A DNA stretch of 5,323 bases from Chloroflexi bacterium UBA6265 (lineage in GTDB: Bacteria > Chloroflexota > Chloroflexia > Thermomicrobiales > UBA6265), in assembly GCA_002440805.1 (NCBI GenBank), contig DJVD01000097.1, positions 1 through 5,323 of the forward strand. Direction: 5' to 3'. Under the pieces are notes generated by a model that did not search any database, was not told where the DNA came from, and saw only the letters and a program-made list of their open reading frames with translations. The position numbers and the translations under genes are program-made. Numbering within the stretch: position 1 is the stretch's first letter; each line of letters begins with the position of its first letter. Shown piece by piece: positions 279 to 5,231 of the stretch.

Positions 279-1358
279 CTAGCGATCGGGCCGGGACGAT
301 GCAGCCGGCGAAAGCGAAATCACCGCATCCCCGAACGCGGGCACATGATCGGCCAGGGCTTCGCGTACGCGCGAGGTGATCGCCGTGGCATCCTGAACCG
401 ACAGTTCGGCATCAACCTCCACCTCAAGATCCGTAAACACCTTGTGTCCAGACCAGCGGGCGCGAGCATTCTTCACGGCAACCACGCCATCCACATGCAT
501 GGGGGCATGCTCGATTTCCTCGAGGATGGATGGCTCGATGCCATCGAGGGTGCGGCGGAATATCGACTTGCTCGATTGCCACAGGATACCGACGATCGTG
601 ATGGTAATGAGCAGGCCGATGATGGGATCGATAATGGGCGCGCCCAGCAGCGTGCCAAACACGGCTATGAGCACGGCCAGGGAGGTGAACCCATCGATCC
701 GCGCGTGTTGACCATCGGCGATCAAGGCCGCCGAACCTATCTGCCTGCCGGTACGAATCTGGAGGATGGCGACGAGTTCGTTGCCGATAAAGCCCACGAT
801 AGCCGCAGCGGCCACCCAACCGAGATAGTCCATGGGTTCGGGATTGATGAGCTTGCGTATGGATTCCACGCCGGCCACGATTGCCGATGCCGCAATCGAA
901 ATCAGGATGACCATTCCGGCCAGGTCTTCGGAGCGACCGTATCCATAGGTATAGGTGCGGCTTGCCACCCGGCGCTGGAGCCAGAAGGCGATGAGCAGCG
1001 GAATGGAGTTGGCACCATCGCCCAGGTTATGCACGGTATCGGCAAAGAGTGCCGTCGATCCCGAAAAGTAGAAAATGATGATCTGGATAATGGTCGTGAC
1101 GCCGAGGCTGACAAGCGCCCATTTGGTGGCCCAGAACCCGCGCTCGTTCGATTCCATGACGCTATCCACCTTTTCGTGGACATCGTGACTATGGAAGAAG
1201 GTTTGCTGGGCCCAACCAAGCACACCCGGAAGGTGTGTATGGGAATGGTTACCGTGATCGTGGCCGTGCGCGTGATCATGATCATGGCCGTGGTCGTGGT
1301 CGTGGTCGTGCGCCGTGGCATCTTCTCGCTGTTCCAATCGTTGAGCGTGGTCCGACAT
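279..1358 (-). CDS. Cation diffusion facilitator (CDF) metal efflux transporter, His-rich N-terminus
   Basis: A 359-residue inner-membrane divalent-metal/proton antiporter of the CDF family, exporting metal from the cytoplasm. Residues 17-42 hold 13 histidines alternating mostly with Asp/Gly, a likely cytoplasmic metal-binding leader; H56, H58 and H61 follow. The transmembrane domain covers about 78-260. Both intramembrane metal-site motifs are intact: HxxxD at H110/D114 in TM2 (ADTVHNLGD) and HxxxD at H218/D222 in TM5 (ADGQHARID). The C-terminal 80-90 residues form the usual cytoplasmic ferredoxin-like domain. From memory it strongly resembles Mycobacterium tuberculosis Rv2025c (shared FADTxHN, YTYGxGRxEDLAG, VGFIGNE, GSAALIADG-HAR-DGFTSLAV), which is controlled by the Ni/Co sensor KmtR. 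Family knowledge allows Zn, Co, Ni or Cd; the neighbouring repressor's ligands favour Ni/Co. The start at 1358 follows a GGGGGG tract (1364-1369) acting as ribosome site, 13 nt after the repressor stop, so it is the second gene of an operon. Confidence 0.93.
   Translation of the reverse strand: MSDHAQRLEQREDATAHDHDHDHGHDHDHAHGHDHGNHSHTHLPGVLGWAQQTFFHSHDVHEKVDSVMESNERGFWATKWALVSLGVTTIIQIIIFYFSGSTALFADTVHNLGDGANSIPLLIAFWLQRRVASRTYTYGYGRSEDLAGMVILISIAASAIVAGVESIRKLINPEPMDYLGWVAAAAIVGFIGNELVAILQIRTGRQIGSAALIADGQHARIDGFTSLAVLIAVFGTLLGAPIIDPIIGLLITITIVGILWQSSKSIFRRTLDGIEPSILEEIEHAPMHVDGVVAVKNARARWSGHKVFTDLEVEVDAELSVQDATAITSRVREALADHVPAFGDAVISLSPAASSRPDR
1291..1308. repeat. Three tandem TGGTCG hexamers encoding the His/Asp leader
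   Basis: TGGTCG is repeated three times without change; on the minus strand it reads CGACCA and encodes alternating His and Asp codons. It is the most regular part of the His-rich segment of the CDF gene (codons spread over 1233-1310). Such short in-frame repeats can change copy number by slippage, altering leader length without breaking the frame. Confidence 0.7.
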
Positions 1359-1363
1359 CTCTA

Positions 1364-1369
1364 CCCCCC
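1364..1369 (-). promoter_or_regulatory. G6 tract before CDF start: ribosome site, possible second repressor contact
   Basis: On the minus strand the sequence between the two genes reads TAACCGGGGGGTAGAG and then ATG. The G-run is the only purine-rich stretch at ribosome-site distance from the CDF start. It also partly resembles single-G-tract operators of RcnR-type regulators (consensus as I recall it TACT-G6-N-AGTA), matching the G6 core, one flank base pair and the following AG. The ribosome-site role is likely; the operator role is speculative. Confidence 0.45.
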
Positions 1370-1371
1370 GG

Positions 1372-1662
1372 TTACTTCAGATAGCGATTGAGCGCGTGCT
1401 TGAGGCGATCCCACTCCTCGTCGGCGGTGCCATTGCTGGCGGCCTCACGCAGGCAGGATTCGATATGGTCTTCCAGCACGATCCGGGCGGCGCGATCAAC
1501 TGCAGATCGCACCGCTGCCAATTGCACCAGCACATCCGTGCAATCGCGACCTTCTTCCACCATGCGTTTAATCGAACTGACATGTCCCGCGGTGCGGGCA
1601 AGCTGATCAATCACCGCCTTGGTTTGGCTGTGGTGGTGGGTTGTGTAGTGATCGTCTTCCAT
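1372..1662 (-). CDS. CsoR/RcnR-family metal-sensing transcriptional repressor
   Basis: A 96-residue all-alpha DUF156-type repressor; the family forms tetramers that bind G/C-tract operators and let go when loaded with metal. The GRDCTDVLVQLAAVRSAV stretch and VLEDHIESCL are family hallmarks. Ligand positions C41, H66 and C70 have the exact 25- and 4-residue spacings of CsoR (C36, H61, C65). Aligning without gaps to RcnR places H9 at the position of RcnR H3 (32 residues before the cysteine). The result is an H-C-H-C fingerprint like that of the nickel sensor InrS, unlike the H-C-H-H of RcnR. Extra His residues (H5, H10, H11) flank H9. I chose the ATG at 1662; reading further upstream is possible only from a TTG at 1710, which would run through the operator and promoter. 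It is the first gene of an operon with the CDF transporter and is probably autoregulated. Exact metal remains an inference: Ni/Co favoured, Cu or Zn possible. Confidence 0.92.
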   Translation of the reverse strand: MEDDHYTTHHHSQTKAVIDQLARTAGHVSSIKRMVEEGRDCTDVLVQLAAVRSAVDRAARIVLEDHIESCLREAASNGTADEEWDRLKHALNRYLK

Positions 1663-1837: not shown

Positions 1838-2290
1838 CTAGGGCGTATCGAAGTCGATCTGCGGGGATGTACACGCCGGATCGCCGGTACCATACAACGT
1901 CAGCCTGTACTTCAGCGTCTGCCCGGGATCGATGCCGACGATGAGCTGGCTATTGCTGGCATTACCACCATCGAGGCACTGCACCAGCATCATCGAATTG
2001 GTGAGGCGTTCGGTACCGGTATTGGTGACCGCTACCGTAACATCGATCTCCTTTTTGCCGTCCACATCGCGGGAAGCCAGCACACCAAAGCCGCTGGCCT
2101 GCAGCATCTGGCCGGGAACACCTACCGTAGGCACAGGGACCTCATCGTCCCAGGGGAGATCGACCACACCAAACGCGATCAGCCCCACGGCCAGCGAAAA
2201 CAGCAGCAATAACACCGAGAACGCAGCCAACACCACGATGTAGCCGGGAACGGAACTGCGATTGGGATCGGAAGGCGGTTGGGCGGACAT
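1838..2290 (-). CDS. Small single-pass membrane protein, unknown function
   Basis: A 150-residue protein that I do not recognise. Residues 1-15 are polar and proline-rich. Residues about 17-43 form one long hydrophobic helix (GYIVVLAAFSVLLLLFSLAVGL and on) without a lipobox cysteine, so it is an uncleaved anchor rather than a lipoprotein. The remaining 105 residues look like a small beta-rich domain: GKKEIDVTVAVTNTG, then SQLIVGIDPGQTLKYRLTLYG, the alternating pattern seen in immunoglobulin-like or FxLYD-like folds. C105 and C140 are the only cysteines and could form a disulfide outside the cytoplasm. I chose the ATG at 2290 because a GGAG ribosome site lies 6 nt before it; upstream in-frame extension to 2401 has no protein-like character. 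It has no close partner: 128 nt or more separate it from the next starts on either side. The gene itself is credible; function is unknown. Confidence 0.75.
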   Translation of the reverse strand: MSAQPPSDPNRSSVPGYIVVLAAFSVLLLLFSLAVGLIAFGVVDLPWDDEVPVPTVGVPGQMLQASGFGVLASRDVDGKKEIDVTVAVTNTGTERLTNSMMLVQCLDGGNASNSQLIVGIDPGQTLKYRLTLYGTGDPACTSPQIDFDTP

Positions 2291-2330: not shown

Positions 2331-2428
2331 GCCGCCTTCGGTGTCATGGATACCCTCGCGACGGACCCTGGTCGTGCAGTTTGACGTGGCAGCGACCGCA
2401 CAGGAGACGACGGTCATCACCAATGGCA

Positions 2429-2460
2429 ACCGTAGCGGCAAGGGCGCACTCCGCTATGGT
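2429..2460. terminator. Imperfect inverted repeat after the phosphatase gene
   Basis: ACCGTAGCGG (2429-2438) and CCGCTATGGT (2451-2460) pair over 10 positions with one G-T wobble, enclosing a 12-nt loop. It lies 53 nt past the phosphatase stop in the direction of transcription, at the end of the four-gene cluster, which suits a terminator or 3'-end stabiliser. No T-run follows on the minus strand, so it would not be a standard intrinsic terminator. Nothing else is recognisable in 2402-2512. Confidence 0.4.
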
Positions 2461-2512
2461 GCTGAACGATTATAAGGGCTCCCCAACGGCCATGTTGTTC
2501 GGTATCTTACGG

Positions 2513-3703
2513 TTAACCCGTATCCGGGGCAGCGATGAGTTGACGAAGGGTGGCAAAGTCAGCGTGATGCTCTGCCAGCCGGTCCTCGCGCATTTTCGGA
2601 GGAATTGCGATGAGCTTCTCCAAATCGGCGATGGCGGCATTTCCCACCTTCACGGCCTGGTCCGCCGAAATCACGCCTCGCTCCCAGGCAGCAGCCGCGG
2701 CGGCGATATACGTATCGAAGTAGTTAATCCCAAACTCGTAATGCAATTTTGGCTGGTTGAGGCTGGTTTCGTTGACATCGTGGATGAAGACTCCGCGAAC
2801 AACCTCACCCAGCTCCTGCACCATTTCCCGACCTACCTGCACATCGCCCTGGCCGCTATCGCCCACAAACACCAGGCCGTACTCCGGGAACAACTGATGA
2901 TACCGGCGGATATTCCGCAGCTTGCGTTTCGCCATCTCTGCGTGTGATCGCAGCGCAAACAAGCTGCCGGTGAGAATGGTGTGCTGGTGAATGCCGGCGT
3001 TACGCAGGGTTCGCCGGGTCCACATTGCGATCAGGCCGGTCAGCAAACCCGGTCGGGCGGTGACGAACGTAAGGTCGCCATCCTCGCCCTGACCATCGGG
3101 GGCGTGATCAAGCACATTGAAGAACGCCAGTACTCCGGGGTAGCGGGTTTTACCGGGATAGCGGCGATCGTGCAATCGCGCAAACACCGTATCGTCGATA
3201 TCCGAAAGCACCTTCAATTCGTCTGTTGGCGACTGGTGCGCGGCGATATGATCGAGGATCTCAGTGCGGATATCGTCATCATCAACATCAACAAAGATCA
3301 ACCGGGAGAGATCGCGGTGGCTATCCGATGTATTGATCGTGTTACGAAGTTGCCGTAATTCCTCACCCGTGGAGGCGAGGATGATGTTGCGGATGCCGAT
3401 CTGCAGGGATCGCCGGGTGGAGCCCTTCTGCAGCCCGCGCACAATTTCGGCCCGGGTCTCAAGGGAGAGATCGTGAATACGATCAACCGTGAGCAGTTGC
3501 ACCAGGTCAGATCGATACTTGGCCCCCCGCCAGCGGTTGTGCAGGTTGCGAATCAGGGCGCGTTGATTCAGTTGCATTAACACCATATCAAGGGACGGTC
3601 CCTCGCACATCGCCAGCAATTCAAGGATCCGCTGTTCATCGCTCCGGTTGGTCCAGCCCCGAATCAGGCGTTTGATCTCATCAACGATTTGCTGCTGGTT
3701 CAT
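2513..3703 (-). CDS. App1-type phosphatidate phosphatase (HAD fold, DUF2183) with helical N-terminal domain
   Basis: A 396-residue protein. Residues about 165-325 match the App1 catalytic domain, a Mg-dependent HAD phosphatase that in yeast App1 removes phosphate from phosphatidate to give diacylglycerol. Visible motifs: D168-I-D-D-T172 (SDIDDTV, motif I nucleophile and acid/base), FVTAR with T215 (motif II), K259/K261 (motif III region), GDSGQGD with D282 and D287 (motif IV), then the family's FIHDV at 306-310. Residues 1-160 are helical and not part of the HAD core; segments near 25-47 and 103-125 look alike (hydrophobic helix, G-x-x-L, then LN/IN), suggesting a duplicated helical repeat. 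The C-terminal 85 residues include an alanine run. No signal peptide, so it is cytoplasmic. The ATG at 3703 overlaps the kinase gene by 23 nt, with a GAGGAAAGG ribosome site 12 nt upstream, a rather long spacing; the only upstream option is a TTG at 3748. Substrate is inferred from family and from the lipid kinase partner. Confidence 0.85.
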   Translation of the reverse strand: MNQQQIVDEIKRLIRGWTNRSDEQRILELLAMCEGPSLDMVLMQLNQRALIRNLHNRWRGAKYRSDLVQLLTVDRIHDLSLETRAEIVRGLQKGSTRRSLQIGIRNIILASTGEELRQLRNTINTSDSHRDLSRLIFVDVDDDDIRTEILDHIAAHQSPTDELKVLSDIDDTVFARLHDRRYPGKTRYPGVLAFFNVLDHAPDGQGEDGDLTFVTARPGLLTGLIAMWTRRTLRNAGIHQHTILTGSLFALRSHAEMAKRKLRNIRRYHQLFPEYGLVFVGDSGQGDVQVGREMVQELGEVVRGVFIHDVNETSLNQPKLHYEFGINYFDTYIAAAAAAWERGVISADQAVKVGNAAIADLEKLIAIPPKMREDRLAEHHADFATLRQLIAAPDTG

Positions 3704-4628
3704 GTACAGTGGGTGCCTTTCCTCGGATGATGAGTGCGGCCGGATCAACAGCGATCGTGATGCGACTCACATCGCTCCACACATCGCCATCAATCTGCGC
3801 TGCTGCTGGTATTTCCGGGATAATCGTAACGCGTTCAATATGGTGATCTATCATGCCGCGGGTGGTACGGTTGCTGCCGCGAAGTCCACGCCAGGCCACC
3901 GGCAACCAGCCGATGAGTGACTGCGGCGCGACGTGCAGCAGGTTGAGCTTGCCATCCTGCAGGTTGGCCTCAGGCAAAATCGTGATGCCACCAGGCACGA
4001 CGCCGCAGTTGCCCACAAGCACGCTCCATGCCGCGTCGATCTCGAGTCGCTGGCCATCCACCTCCACCTGCATTGCCAGGGGCGAACGCATCAGGTGCGG
4101 CATACCGGAGGCGAAGTAGGCTCCGGGGCCAATCGCCCGCTTTAGTCGCGGTGAAACGCCACCCAGGCTAAGCGCATCGCGACCTACGCCGACGACGACC
4201 AGGAAGCGATCATCCAGTACCTGACCGGAAGCGAACTCCAGTTGCACCTTGCCCATATCAATGGGAGTATCCGTGCCCATCAGGGCCGTGCGAACGGAAT
4301 GATCGAGCCGTCGTTCCTTACCAATGGCGTTGAGGTGGAAGATGTTGGCCGTGCCGATGGGAACAATGCCCAGCGCCACGCCGGAATGCGCGAGCACGGT
4401 ACCAACATTGCGCACCGTGCCATCGCCGCCGGCCACGATCACGATATCGGCACCAGCATGCAGCGCCTGTTCTGCCTGTAATCCGCCCGGATGCTCAACT
4501 GTGGTGTGGAATCGGGTTGGTGGTGGATAACCAAGGGCGGCGCAATGATGCTGCACCAGCTCCCATACCCTGAGGTGATGCTTGCGGGCGGGATTGATCA
4601 CGCAATAGACGCGGCTGTTCCGGGTCAT
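3681..4628 (-). CDS. Diacylglycerol kinase-family lipid kinase
   Basis: A 315-residue soluble enzyme of the DAGK catalytic (DgkB/YegS/BmrU) family, which phosphorylates diacylglycerol or a related lipid with ATP at the membrane surface. Domain 1 starts with VYCVINPARKHH (6-18; the family's NPxSG-like opening with Lys/His in place of the Ser/Gly), then the nucleotide-binding G67-G-D-G-T71, and P90-I-G-T-A-N-I-F97, a variant of the common PLGTGNDFA. Domain 2 carries LPEANLQDGKLNLLHV, the counterpart of the P-x-A-x-x-DGxLD motif, and Q278-I-D-G-D282 near the end, the usual QxDGE. Length is normal for the family (about 290-320). It starts 3 nt after the nitroreductase stop and its end overlaps the phosphatase start by 23 nt, so translation is probably coupled on both sides. 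Family is secure; the actual lipid substrate is not, since relatives also act on sphingoid, phosphatidylglycerol or ceramide-like lipids. Confidence 0.93.
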   Translation of the reverse strand: MTRNSRVYCVINPARKHHLRVWELVQHHCAALGYPPPTRFHTTVEHPGGLQAEQALHAGADIVIVAGGDGTVRNVGTVLAHSGVALGIVPIGTANIFHLNAIGKERRLDHSVRTALMGTDTPIDMGKVQLEFASGQVLDDRFLVVVGVGRDALSLGGVSPRLKRAIGPGAYFASGMPHLMRSPLAMQVEVDGQRLEIDAAWSVLVGNCGVVPGGITILPEANLQDGKLNLLHVAPQSLIGWLPVAWRGLRGSNRTTRGMIDHHIERVTIIPEIPAAAQIDGDVWSDVSRITIAVDPAALIIRGKAPTVHEPAANR

Positions 4629-4631
4629 GCG

Positions 4632-5231
4632 TTACCACCGCTCGCGGTGAAGCACCGTCTCGAGAGGACGGCGACCACGCTGAAGCGATCCGCTGCGCTT
4701 GTCAGGTGCCGGGTGACCAATAAACACGACCCCAATCGGCAGGTGATCCGCCGGGATACCCAGTTCCTGCTGCAATTCGGCGGGATCCCTGACGCCGACA
4801 AACGCCGTGCCCAGGCCTTCATCCACGGCGGCAAGCAGCACCAGCATCATCGCGGCGCCGGCATCGGTATGCCAATAGGGAATCGGCCACCCGATCTCTT
4901 CCTGGCCCCCGGCTTTCTTGTCCGGCTCGTTATAGCGCTGGTGATAGAGAGCCTCGCTGGTAGTGATGACGATATGCACCGGTGCCCGACTCATGAACGG
5001 CTCGTGTCCCTGGCGGACATACCATTCCTCGCCCGCGATGGCGGCGATACGGCCGCGTGTATCGGCATTGGTAATTGCGACAAAAGCCATACCCTGGCTA
5101 AACCCCGCGCTGGGCCCACGTCGACCGGCATCGACAATGCGTTCAATCACGTCCCACGCAACCGGTTCTTCCGTAAAGTTCCGGATCATGCGGCGTTTAC
5201 GGACTAAATCATGTAAGGGAGAATTGGTCAT
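4632..5231 (-). CDS. Nitroreductase-family FMN oxidoreductase
   Basis: A 199-residue flavoprotein of the nitroreductase superfamily, which binds FMN as a homodimer and transfers electrons from NAD(P)H to nitro compounds, quinones or other acceptors. The N-terminal KRRMIRNFTEEPV (12-24) is the family's RRS/M-xRxF phosphate-contact motif. AGRRGPSAGFSQ (35-46) is the variant of the common A-x-x-APSaxNxQ segment. PYWHTDAGAAMMLVLLAAVDEGLGTAFVGV (118-147 in all) contains the dimer helix and the GLG loop near the isoalloxazine. Length is normal. The ATG at 5231 follows directly on the TAG stop of the upstream VOC gene with only a weak GAG-type ribosome site, so re-initiation by the same ribosomes is likely. 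Physiological substrate cannot be told; the VOC neighbour hints at detoxification or redox chemistry. No Cys or Fe-S motif and no extra domain is seen. Confidence 0.92.
   Translation of the reverse strand: MTNSPLHDLVRKRRMIRNFTEEPVAWDVIERIVDAGRRGPSAGFSQGMAFVAITNADTRGRIAAIAGEEWYVRQGHEPFMSRAPVHIVITTSEALYHQRYNEPDKKAGGQEEIGWPIPYWHTDAGAAMMLVLLAAVDEGLGTAFVGVRDPAELQQELGIPADHLPIGVVFIGHPAPDKRSGSLQRGRRPLETVLHRERW

What the first reader, a model, noticed from the sequence alone, without database searches (positions are those of the whole stretch)
2513..4628. Overlapping genes encode opposed lipid enzymes: a DAG kinase and an App1-type phosphatidate phosphatase
The kinase family makes phosphatidate from diacylglycerol; the App1 family does the reverse. 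Their genes overlap by 23 nt and are presumably made together. App1 has been studied mainly in yeast actin patches and endocytosis; bacterial DUF2183 proteins are little studied. A coupled pair would form a closed cycle setting the DAG/phosphatidate ratio, or act in sequence on an unusual lipid (one enzyme loading, the other removing phosphate). I regard this as the best candidate here for an undescribed system.
Basis: partly seen in the sequence, partly recalled or inferred. Interest (0 to 1): 0.72.

Follow-up and report, generated by a model that had tools for sequence, protein, structure and literature searches.

The report
Fused lipid kinase and lipid-phosphate phosphatase
Two overlapping bacterial genes encode a DAG-kinase-family protein and an App1-family phosphatase that would likely put a phosphate on a membrane lipid and take it off again; the same two genes sit side by side in many actinobacteria and are joined into one protein in several of their genera, which shows that the pairing is no accident, though neither activity has yet been tested.

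Summary
In detail: on the minus strand a YegS/DAG-kinase-family gene (4628-3681) overlaps by 23 nt an App1_cat (DUF2183) phosphatase gene (3703-2513). Of 78 loci with App1 relatives, 35 form an actinobacterial set; in 26 of these the kinase lies directly upstream on the same strand (15) or in the same open frame (11). The other 43 loci, mostly Myxococcota, have no kinase in the held DNA. A protein search lists 120 proteins, 55 with both domains, in Knoellia, Kytococcus and Ornithinimicrobium among others; all 55 keep GGDGT and DxDDT. In the window's own genus the pair is accessory: two of three congeners keep both flanking genes but carry another small gene at that site. Best explanation: a coupled kinase/phosphatase on one membrane lipid pool, most likely DAG and phosphatidate; activities, substrate and coupling mechanism are inferred. 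PAP2-DAGK fusions are a known analogue with an unrelated phosphatase. Four literature searches (listings, open-licence papers) showed no description of the App1-DAGK pair. New variant of a known kind.

The parts
3681..4628 (-). YegS/DAG-kinase-family lipid kinase gene, 315 aa
   Evidence: ORF; Pfam DAGK_cat and YegS_C above cut-off; PDB relatives 4wer, DgkB 2qv7, YegS 2jgr
4416..4430 (-). kinase GGDGT motif (residues 67-71)
   Evidence: sequence; GGDGT in all 32 kinase frames found near App1 relatives
2513..3703 (-). App1-type (DUF2183, APP1_cat) HAD phosphatase gene, 396 aa, overlapping the kinase by 23 nt
   Evidence: ORF; Pfam APP1_cat 47.5 bits; overlap
3233..3703 (-). N-terminal all-helical domain of the phosphatase (residues 1-157), two sets of five helices; all or most of the first set is missing in most fused proteins
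   Evidence: AF2 models, mean pLDDT 84.6 (whole) and 92.6 (domain alone); fusion boundaries
2669..3226 (-). HAD catalytic domain of the phosphatase (about residues 160-345)
3188..3202 (-). DIDDT, HAD motif I (residues 168-172)
   Evidence: invariant in the 15-sequence alignment
2843..2863 (-). GDSGQGD, HAD motif IV region (residues 281-287)
   Evidence: G281, D282, G284-D287 invariant in the 15-sequence alignment
4632..5231 (-). nitroreductase-family gene whose stop lies 3 nt before the kinase ATG; conserved flank of the site
   Evidence: Pfam Nitroreductase; 77% (G003) and 78% (G001) identical copies
1838..2290 (-). small protein, probably membrane-anchored, the other conserved flank
   Evidence: 61% (G003) and 56% (G001, residues 40-150) identical copies

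Best explanation
The two genes encode what is likely a coupled enzyme pair, a DAG-kinase-family protein and an App1-family HAD phosphatase, predicted to phosphorylate and dephosphorylate the same membrane lipid (likely diacylglycerol and phosphatidate) and so to set the ratio of the two forms. Shown here: the gene pair, its order (kinase upstream), its conservation in many actinobacteria, its fusion into single proteins, and intact catalytic motifs in both halves. Inferred: that both halves are active, that the substrate is DAG/phosphatidate rather than another lipid phosphate, that they work on one pool, and that something switches the balance between them so that the cycle does not merely burn ATP. 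The helical N-terminal domain of the phosphatase could dock it to the membrane or to the kinase; that is a guess. In the fused proteins the kinase would bring the phosphatase to the membrane surface, which could explain why the first set of N-terminal helices is dispensable there.
Against: No activity is tested. The YegS family is not tied to DAG: a bacterial ceramide kinase paper appears in the YegS search (PMC10331486, title and start of abstract). The kinase falls below NCBI's cut-off for the YegS/Rv2252/BmrU subfamily (97.4 against 118.65 bits). The phosphatase subfamily also exists without a kinase next to it (43 of 78 loci and, among the actinobacteria, L011, L032, L041), and the kinase is near but apart in 6 of 35, so it can be uncoupled at gene level. 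Foldseek itself gave no match below E 1e-3 and a profile search of PDB sequences gave nothing meaningful for the phosphatase. The genomes have further kinases of this family (two to four genes in each of 13 searched, pair kinase included) and PAP2 phosphatases (12 of 13), so the pair is not the only route. Correlated divergence would also arise from shared species history.
Confidence: 0.52

Rival explanations
1. Sequential action on an uncommon lipid: the kinase and the phosphatase handle different phosphates of one pathway (for example loading a phosphate on a glycolipid, ceramide or phosphatidylglycerol headgroup and later removing one), so there is no closed DAG/phosphatidate cycle.
For: A YegS-related bacterial kinase acts on ceramide (PMC10331486, title and start of abstract); HAD phosphatases have diverse substrates (PMC12357310, passage); the pair is patchy and accessory in the window's genus, as a speciality pathway would be.
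Against: No further lipid-pathway gene was seen to recur beside the pair: of nine representatives of recurrent neighbour families scanned, five matched Pfam (an ABC ATPase, IMP dehydrogenase twice, transketolase, a histidine kinase) and four matched nothing.
Confidence: 0.2
2. Guard phosphatase: the kinase has the physiological role and the App1 protein removes side products or excess lipid phosphate, or a soluble phosphate, made by the kinase or accumulating with it.
For: The kinase is upstream in all 26 adjacent or fused loci; the phosphatase subfamily exists without a neighbouring kinase in Myxococcota; HAD phosphatases often clear damaged metabolites (recalled).
Against: The fold match to a phosphatidate-binding domain and the App1 family point to phosphatidate itself; one-to-one fusion gives equal amounts, which fits antagonism or channelling as well as guarding.
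Confidence: 0.15
3. Supply of DAG for triacylglycerol storage, with the kinase returning surplus DAG to phospholipid synthesis.
For: WS/DGAT genes (PF03007) are present in 8 of 13 pair-bearing genomes searched; phosphatidate phosphatases feed triacylglycerol synthesis in Streptomyces (PMC3599759, passages).
Against: 5 of 13 have no WS/DGAT match, the window's own genome among them (73% complete), and PAP2 phosphatases are there anyway (12 of 13).
Confidence: 0.08
4. Chance or hitch-hiking neighbourhood without a functional link.
For: None of the 40 other near relatives searched has the window's App1 subfamily or an orthologue of its kinase.
Against: 26 of 35 actinobacterial loci adjacent or fused, 55 fusion proteins among 120 listed.
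Confidence: 0.02

Closest known systems
[quoted passage not shown]
   Same: A YegS-type kinase and a lipid-phosphate phosphatase in one chain; an example with PF01569+PF00781+PF19279 is P0207; such a protein is named in a Streptomyces albulus paper (PMC12016549, passages).
   Different: PAP2 is an unrelated integral-membrane phosphatase and stands before the kinase; here a HAD phosphatase with a helical domain follows the kinase. Both kinds may occur in one genome: in G432, which has an App1-kinase pair (L010), a PAP2 match and a kinase match lie 39 nt apart in one frame, with one stop inside the kinase match.
Yeast App1 phosphatidate phosphatase
   Same: Same Pfam catalytic family and DxDxT motif.
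   Different: No kinase partner is mentioned for it in the passages I saw; the bacterial subfamily has its own N-terminal helical domain and scores only 28-48 bits to the Pfam model in the ten proteins scanned, against 170 bits for the distant DUF2183 of G031.
Lipin/Pah and Nir LNS2 domains
   Different: Nir LNS2 lacks the catalytic Asp; no sequence match to it in a profile search of the PDB.
DgkB and YegS lipid kinases
   Same: Sequence relatives with solved structures (E 4e-14 and 4e-11); same domains and GGDGT motif. DgkB recycles DAG to phosphatidate (PMC7864038, passages).
   Different: Those are stand-alone kinases (recalled); the window kinase is below NCBI's subfamily cut-off.

Membership tests
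APP1_cat (PF09949, DUF2183) phosphatases | Pfam profile score above the gathering cut-off | tested here: met
   47.5 bits against 27.1; 15 of 15 aligned relatives match the family
APP1_cat (PF09949, DUF2183) phosphatases | HAD motifs: DxDx(T/V), Ser/Thr of motif II, Lys of motif III, acidic motif IV | tested here: met
   D168xD170xT172, T212, K261, D282 and D287 invariant in 15 sequences; motif definitions from PMC12357310 (passages); giving T212 and K261 to motifs II and III is by order and position, not by superposition
APP1_cat (PF09949, DUF2183) phosphatases | Phosphatidate phosphatase activity | not testable with these tools
   no assay
YegS/DAG-kinase (PF00781 + PF19279) lipid kinases | Both Pfam domains above cut-off and GGDGT | tested here: met
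NCBIfam TIGR00147 (YegS/Rv2252/BmrU family lipid kinase) | Score above NCBI's curated cut-off | tested here: not met
   97.4 bits against 118.65; so not filed as a member of that NCBI subfamily
PAP2-DAGK fusion proteins | PAP2 domain (PF01569) with the kinase | tested here: not met
   no PF01569 match in the window proteins (E up to 0.1) or in the four fused proteins scanned (E up to 0.01)
App1-DAGK pair as a conserved unit | Kinase and App1 gene adjacent, same strand, kinase upstream, or one frame | tested here: met
   the window, 26 of 35 actinobacterial loci, 55 of 120 listed proteins
Annexin-type or Tse3 N-terminal-type domain (phosphatase residues 1-157) | Fold or profile match that stands out | tested here: inconclusive

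The most novel reading that the evidence does not exclude
A bidirectional lipid-phosphate switch: one polypeptide (or one tightly coupled pair) that both makes and destroys the same lipid phosphate and is flipped by a signal, a membrane-lipid counterpart of bifunctional kinase/phosphatase switches such as PFK-2/FBPase-2 (recalled), present in actinobacteria and apparently shared with another phylum.
Probability: 0.3. Interest if true: 0.78.

Novelty: new variant of a known kind. Interest (0 to 1): 0.58.

Why it matters
If the two activities are confirmed, it gives a genetically simple bacterial system, one gene in Knoellia, Kytococcus and some Ornithinimicrobium, in which the ratio of DAG to phosphatidate (or of another lipid to its phosphate) is set by a single protein. 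It would also give this subfamily of bacterial DUF2183 proteins a function; a 2013 paper states that the soluble PAP1 phosphatases have no homologues in bacterial genomes (PMC3599759, passage), and the App1 type, though not Pah1, is a soluble HAD candidate for that role. The fusions make the question testable with one purified protein.

Tried and rejected
Chance adjacency: rejected. Contamination or a chimeric contig as the source of the pair: judged unlikely, because both flanks have 56-78% identical copies, in the same order and close together, in two congeners. Viral carriage: no relative confirmed in viral contigs (one scan). Link of the more distant DUF2183 proteins with kinases: none of the held flanks (about 1.5 kb a side, some shorter) of L118-L144, L005 and L006 holds a kinase. 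Annexin identity of the N-terminal domain: suggested by the whole-model comparison, but the domain modelled alone did not single out annexins, so I dropped it. The number of fusion events: the tree of 58 rows (a selection of the loci and of the fused proteins) needs two changes of the label 'fused'; one fusion and one split explain it as well as several fusions. Boundaries differ (both sets of N-terminal helices kept in six fusions, P0285-P0290, of which three are named Ornithinimicrobium; App1 matches start at profile positions 58-97 in the other 49), which fits repeated fusion but does not prove it. Direction of transfer between the window's phylum and Actinomycetota: not resolved. A first neighbour clustering was spoilt by long antisense frames and is replaced, which still includes antisense frames of neighbours. 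A first Mantel run gave no number because of undefined values; one search was run without the partial row L063.

Full report
WHAT IS THERE. The window is the whole contig C15 (5323 bases) of an unnamed, 73% complete genome, G000. It carries, all on the minus strand, a nitroreductase-family gene (4632-5231), a kinase gene (3681-4628), an App1-type phosphatase gene (2513-3703), a small protein (1838-2290), and a CsoR-like repressor (1372-1662) with a CDF cation exporter (279-1358); the end of a transporter gene lies on the plus strand at 1-238. The kinase has DAGK_cat and YegS_C above Pfam's cut-offs, the phosphatase has APP1_cat above its cut-off. The overlap of 23 nt is real for the ATG at 3703. 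The kinase ATG is 3 nt behind the nitroreductase stop.

IS THE PAIR LIMITED TO ONE LINEAGE? An alignment of 15 App1 relatives found 78 loci in named genome records. With kinase and phosphatase models built from the hits of the two protein searches I looked for the kinase in the DNA held around each (two more loci, L005 and L006, with distant DUF2183 proteins, were also looked at and have none). 35 loci form an actinobacterial set: 34 labelled Actinomycetota plus L061, labelled Acidobacteria but nested among Ornithinimicrobium in the trees. Of these 35, 15 have the kinase directly upstream on the same strand (matched domain ends 12-89 nt apart), 11 have both in one open frame (Knoellia, Janibacter, Piscicoccus, Agilicoccus, Mobilicoccus, Kineosphaera), 6 have it nearby but apart (453-6034 nt, one of them on the opposite strand), and 3 (L011, L032, L041) have none in the held DNA. 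The other 43 loci, mostly Myxococcota (one distant Acidimicrobiales match, L084, and one partial match, L083, included), have none; some hold less than 2 kb on one side. Among the 15 separate pairs, taking the Met nearest the expected start, the genes overlap by 4 nt in three and by 17 nt in one, are 23-85 nt apart in eight, and no Met was found in three.

FUSION PROTEINS. A search with the Janibacter fusion found 201 proteins and lists 120, 55 of which carry PF09949 and PF00781 together. Named sources are Knoellia, Kytococcus, Ornithinimicrobium (faecis, cryptoxanthini, murale) and one labelled Rothia; the names given are 'diacylglycerol kinase family protein', 'hypothetical protein' or similar. 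GGDGT and DxDDT are kept in 55 of 55, GD[SN]GxxD in 54 of 55. In the six proteins P0285-P0290 the whole phosphatase, both sets of N-terminal helices included, follows the kinase; in the other 49 the match starts at profile position 58-97, so all or most of the first set is missing, as in the 11 fused loci (start 63-97). On a 58-row tree of the catalytic part the label 'fused' needs two changes, so one fusion with a later split, or repeated fusions, are both possible.

CONTROLS. In the same 35 loci the next most recurrent neighbour family within 6 kb is in 7 of 21 genus labels (11 loci; an ABC ATPase), against 18 of 21 with the kinase in the held DNA and 16 with it adjacent or fused. Partners diverge together: correlation 0.88 over 38 pairs, reached in 0 of 2000 permutations; shared species history would also raise this, six of the pairs are the 'nearby but apart' ones, and six others rest on equal contig lengths, not on seen DNA. 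In a spread of 396 actinobacterial genomes 42 match the profile, but only three (G431, G433, G735) over most of its length; the rest are distant matches to the catalytic part, and none of the 27 of those whose DNA was held (L118-L144) has a kinase in its short flanks. G735 (L116) has none in its flank either, G431 is fused, G433 is L011's genome, where the kinase lies elsewhere. So the link belongs to one subfamily of DUF2183 and is confined to some lineages.

THE WINDOW'S OWN COPY. It is accessory. None of 24 other genomes of its family, 3 congeners included (several of them incomplete), has an APP1_cat match; two genomes elsewhere in the order have a different, canonical one. In 400 genomes of its phylum only the window's genome and one weak partial match appear. 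The kinase has no orthologue among the 40 relatives either: the best match by E-value is 33% identical, and those above 36% are short pieces. Two congeners, G003 and G001, keep the small protein (61%, 56%) and the nitroreductase (77%, 78%), but between them lies a different gene of 149-155 codons on the other strand; that gene was not found in G000 (73% complete), apart from a doubtful remnant at 2356-2484 (30% over 43 residues, E 0.003). In the third congener, G002, only the nitroreductase was found in the 7 kb taken. So both genes came or went together, as far as two congeners show. Close relatives of both proteins exist in contigs without names: seven 'longest contig' lengths are shared between the two search lists among the 18 best phosphatase hits, which suggests, but does not show, that they are neighbours there too. 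None of the 62 handles listed (phylum of G431) is one of G001-G430 seen in searches round G000, which argues that the window's genome is not an actinobacterium; its phylum is not named to me.

HOW IT LIKELY WORKS. Taken together: a kinase of a family that makes lipid phosphates and a phosphatase of a family that removes them, encoded together and in some genera as one protein, both with intact motifs. The simplest mechanism is antagonism on one lipid pool, most likely DAG/phosphatidate, with a still unknown signal setting the balance. The pair does not replace the usual enzymes: PAP2 proteins are in 12 of 13 pair-bearing genomes searched, and the 13 genomes (9 of them actinobacterial by their loci, L061 included) have two to four kinase genes each. 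It is not tied to storage lipid: WS/DGAT is in 8 of 13.

KNOWN OR NEW. Kinase-phosphatase fusions with PAP2 are known by annotation (P0207; PMC12016549, passages). For the App1 type I found no description: searches for DUF2183 with bacteri* (2 papers), 'phosphatidate phosphatase App1' with bacterial (5 papers, 4 listed), diacylglycerol kinase, phosphatase, gene fusion, APP1, actinobacteria (3 papers with four of the five terms) and diacylglycerol kinase, phosphatidic acid phosphatase, bifunctional, domain fusion, bacteria (12 papers with four of the five terms, 8 listed) showed nothing on it in titles and abstract starts. The library holds open-licence papers only. Hence 'new variant of a known kind'.

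Noticed in passing
window 279-1662: A CsoR-like metal-sensing repressor directly beside a CDF cation exporter with a His-rich N-terminus; probably accessory too, since similar DNA lies in other family members (G023, G024, G010, G006) but not at this site in the congeners G001 and G003.
   Followed up: partly
window 2356-2484, + strand: Possible remnant of the 149-155-codon gene that two congeners carry at the site of the pair (30% over 43 residues, E 0.003).
   Followed up: partly
L061: A locus labelled Acidobacteria (isolate ATN4) whose kinase and phosphatase nest among Ornithinimicrobium: probably a mislabelled or mixed genome.
   Followed up: partly
L052 (Marihabitans): Separate genes with a 4-nt overlap in which the phosphatase match starts at profile position 83, as in the fusions: perhaps a state close to fusion, or a frameshift.
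   Followed up: no
G432 contig C136, 14266-15558: A PAP2 match and a kinase match lie 39 nt apart in one frame with one stop inside the kinase match, in a genome that also has the App1-kinase pair: both kinds of phosphatase-kinase pairing side by side.
   Followed up: no
L007, L008, L009, L013 and other Myxococcota loci: Myxococcota carry the same phosphatase subfamily widely but without a kinase in the held DNA; its partner there, if any, is unknown.
   Followed up: no
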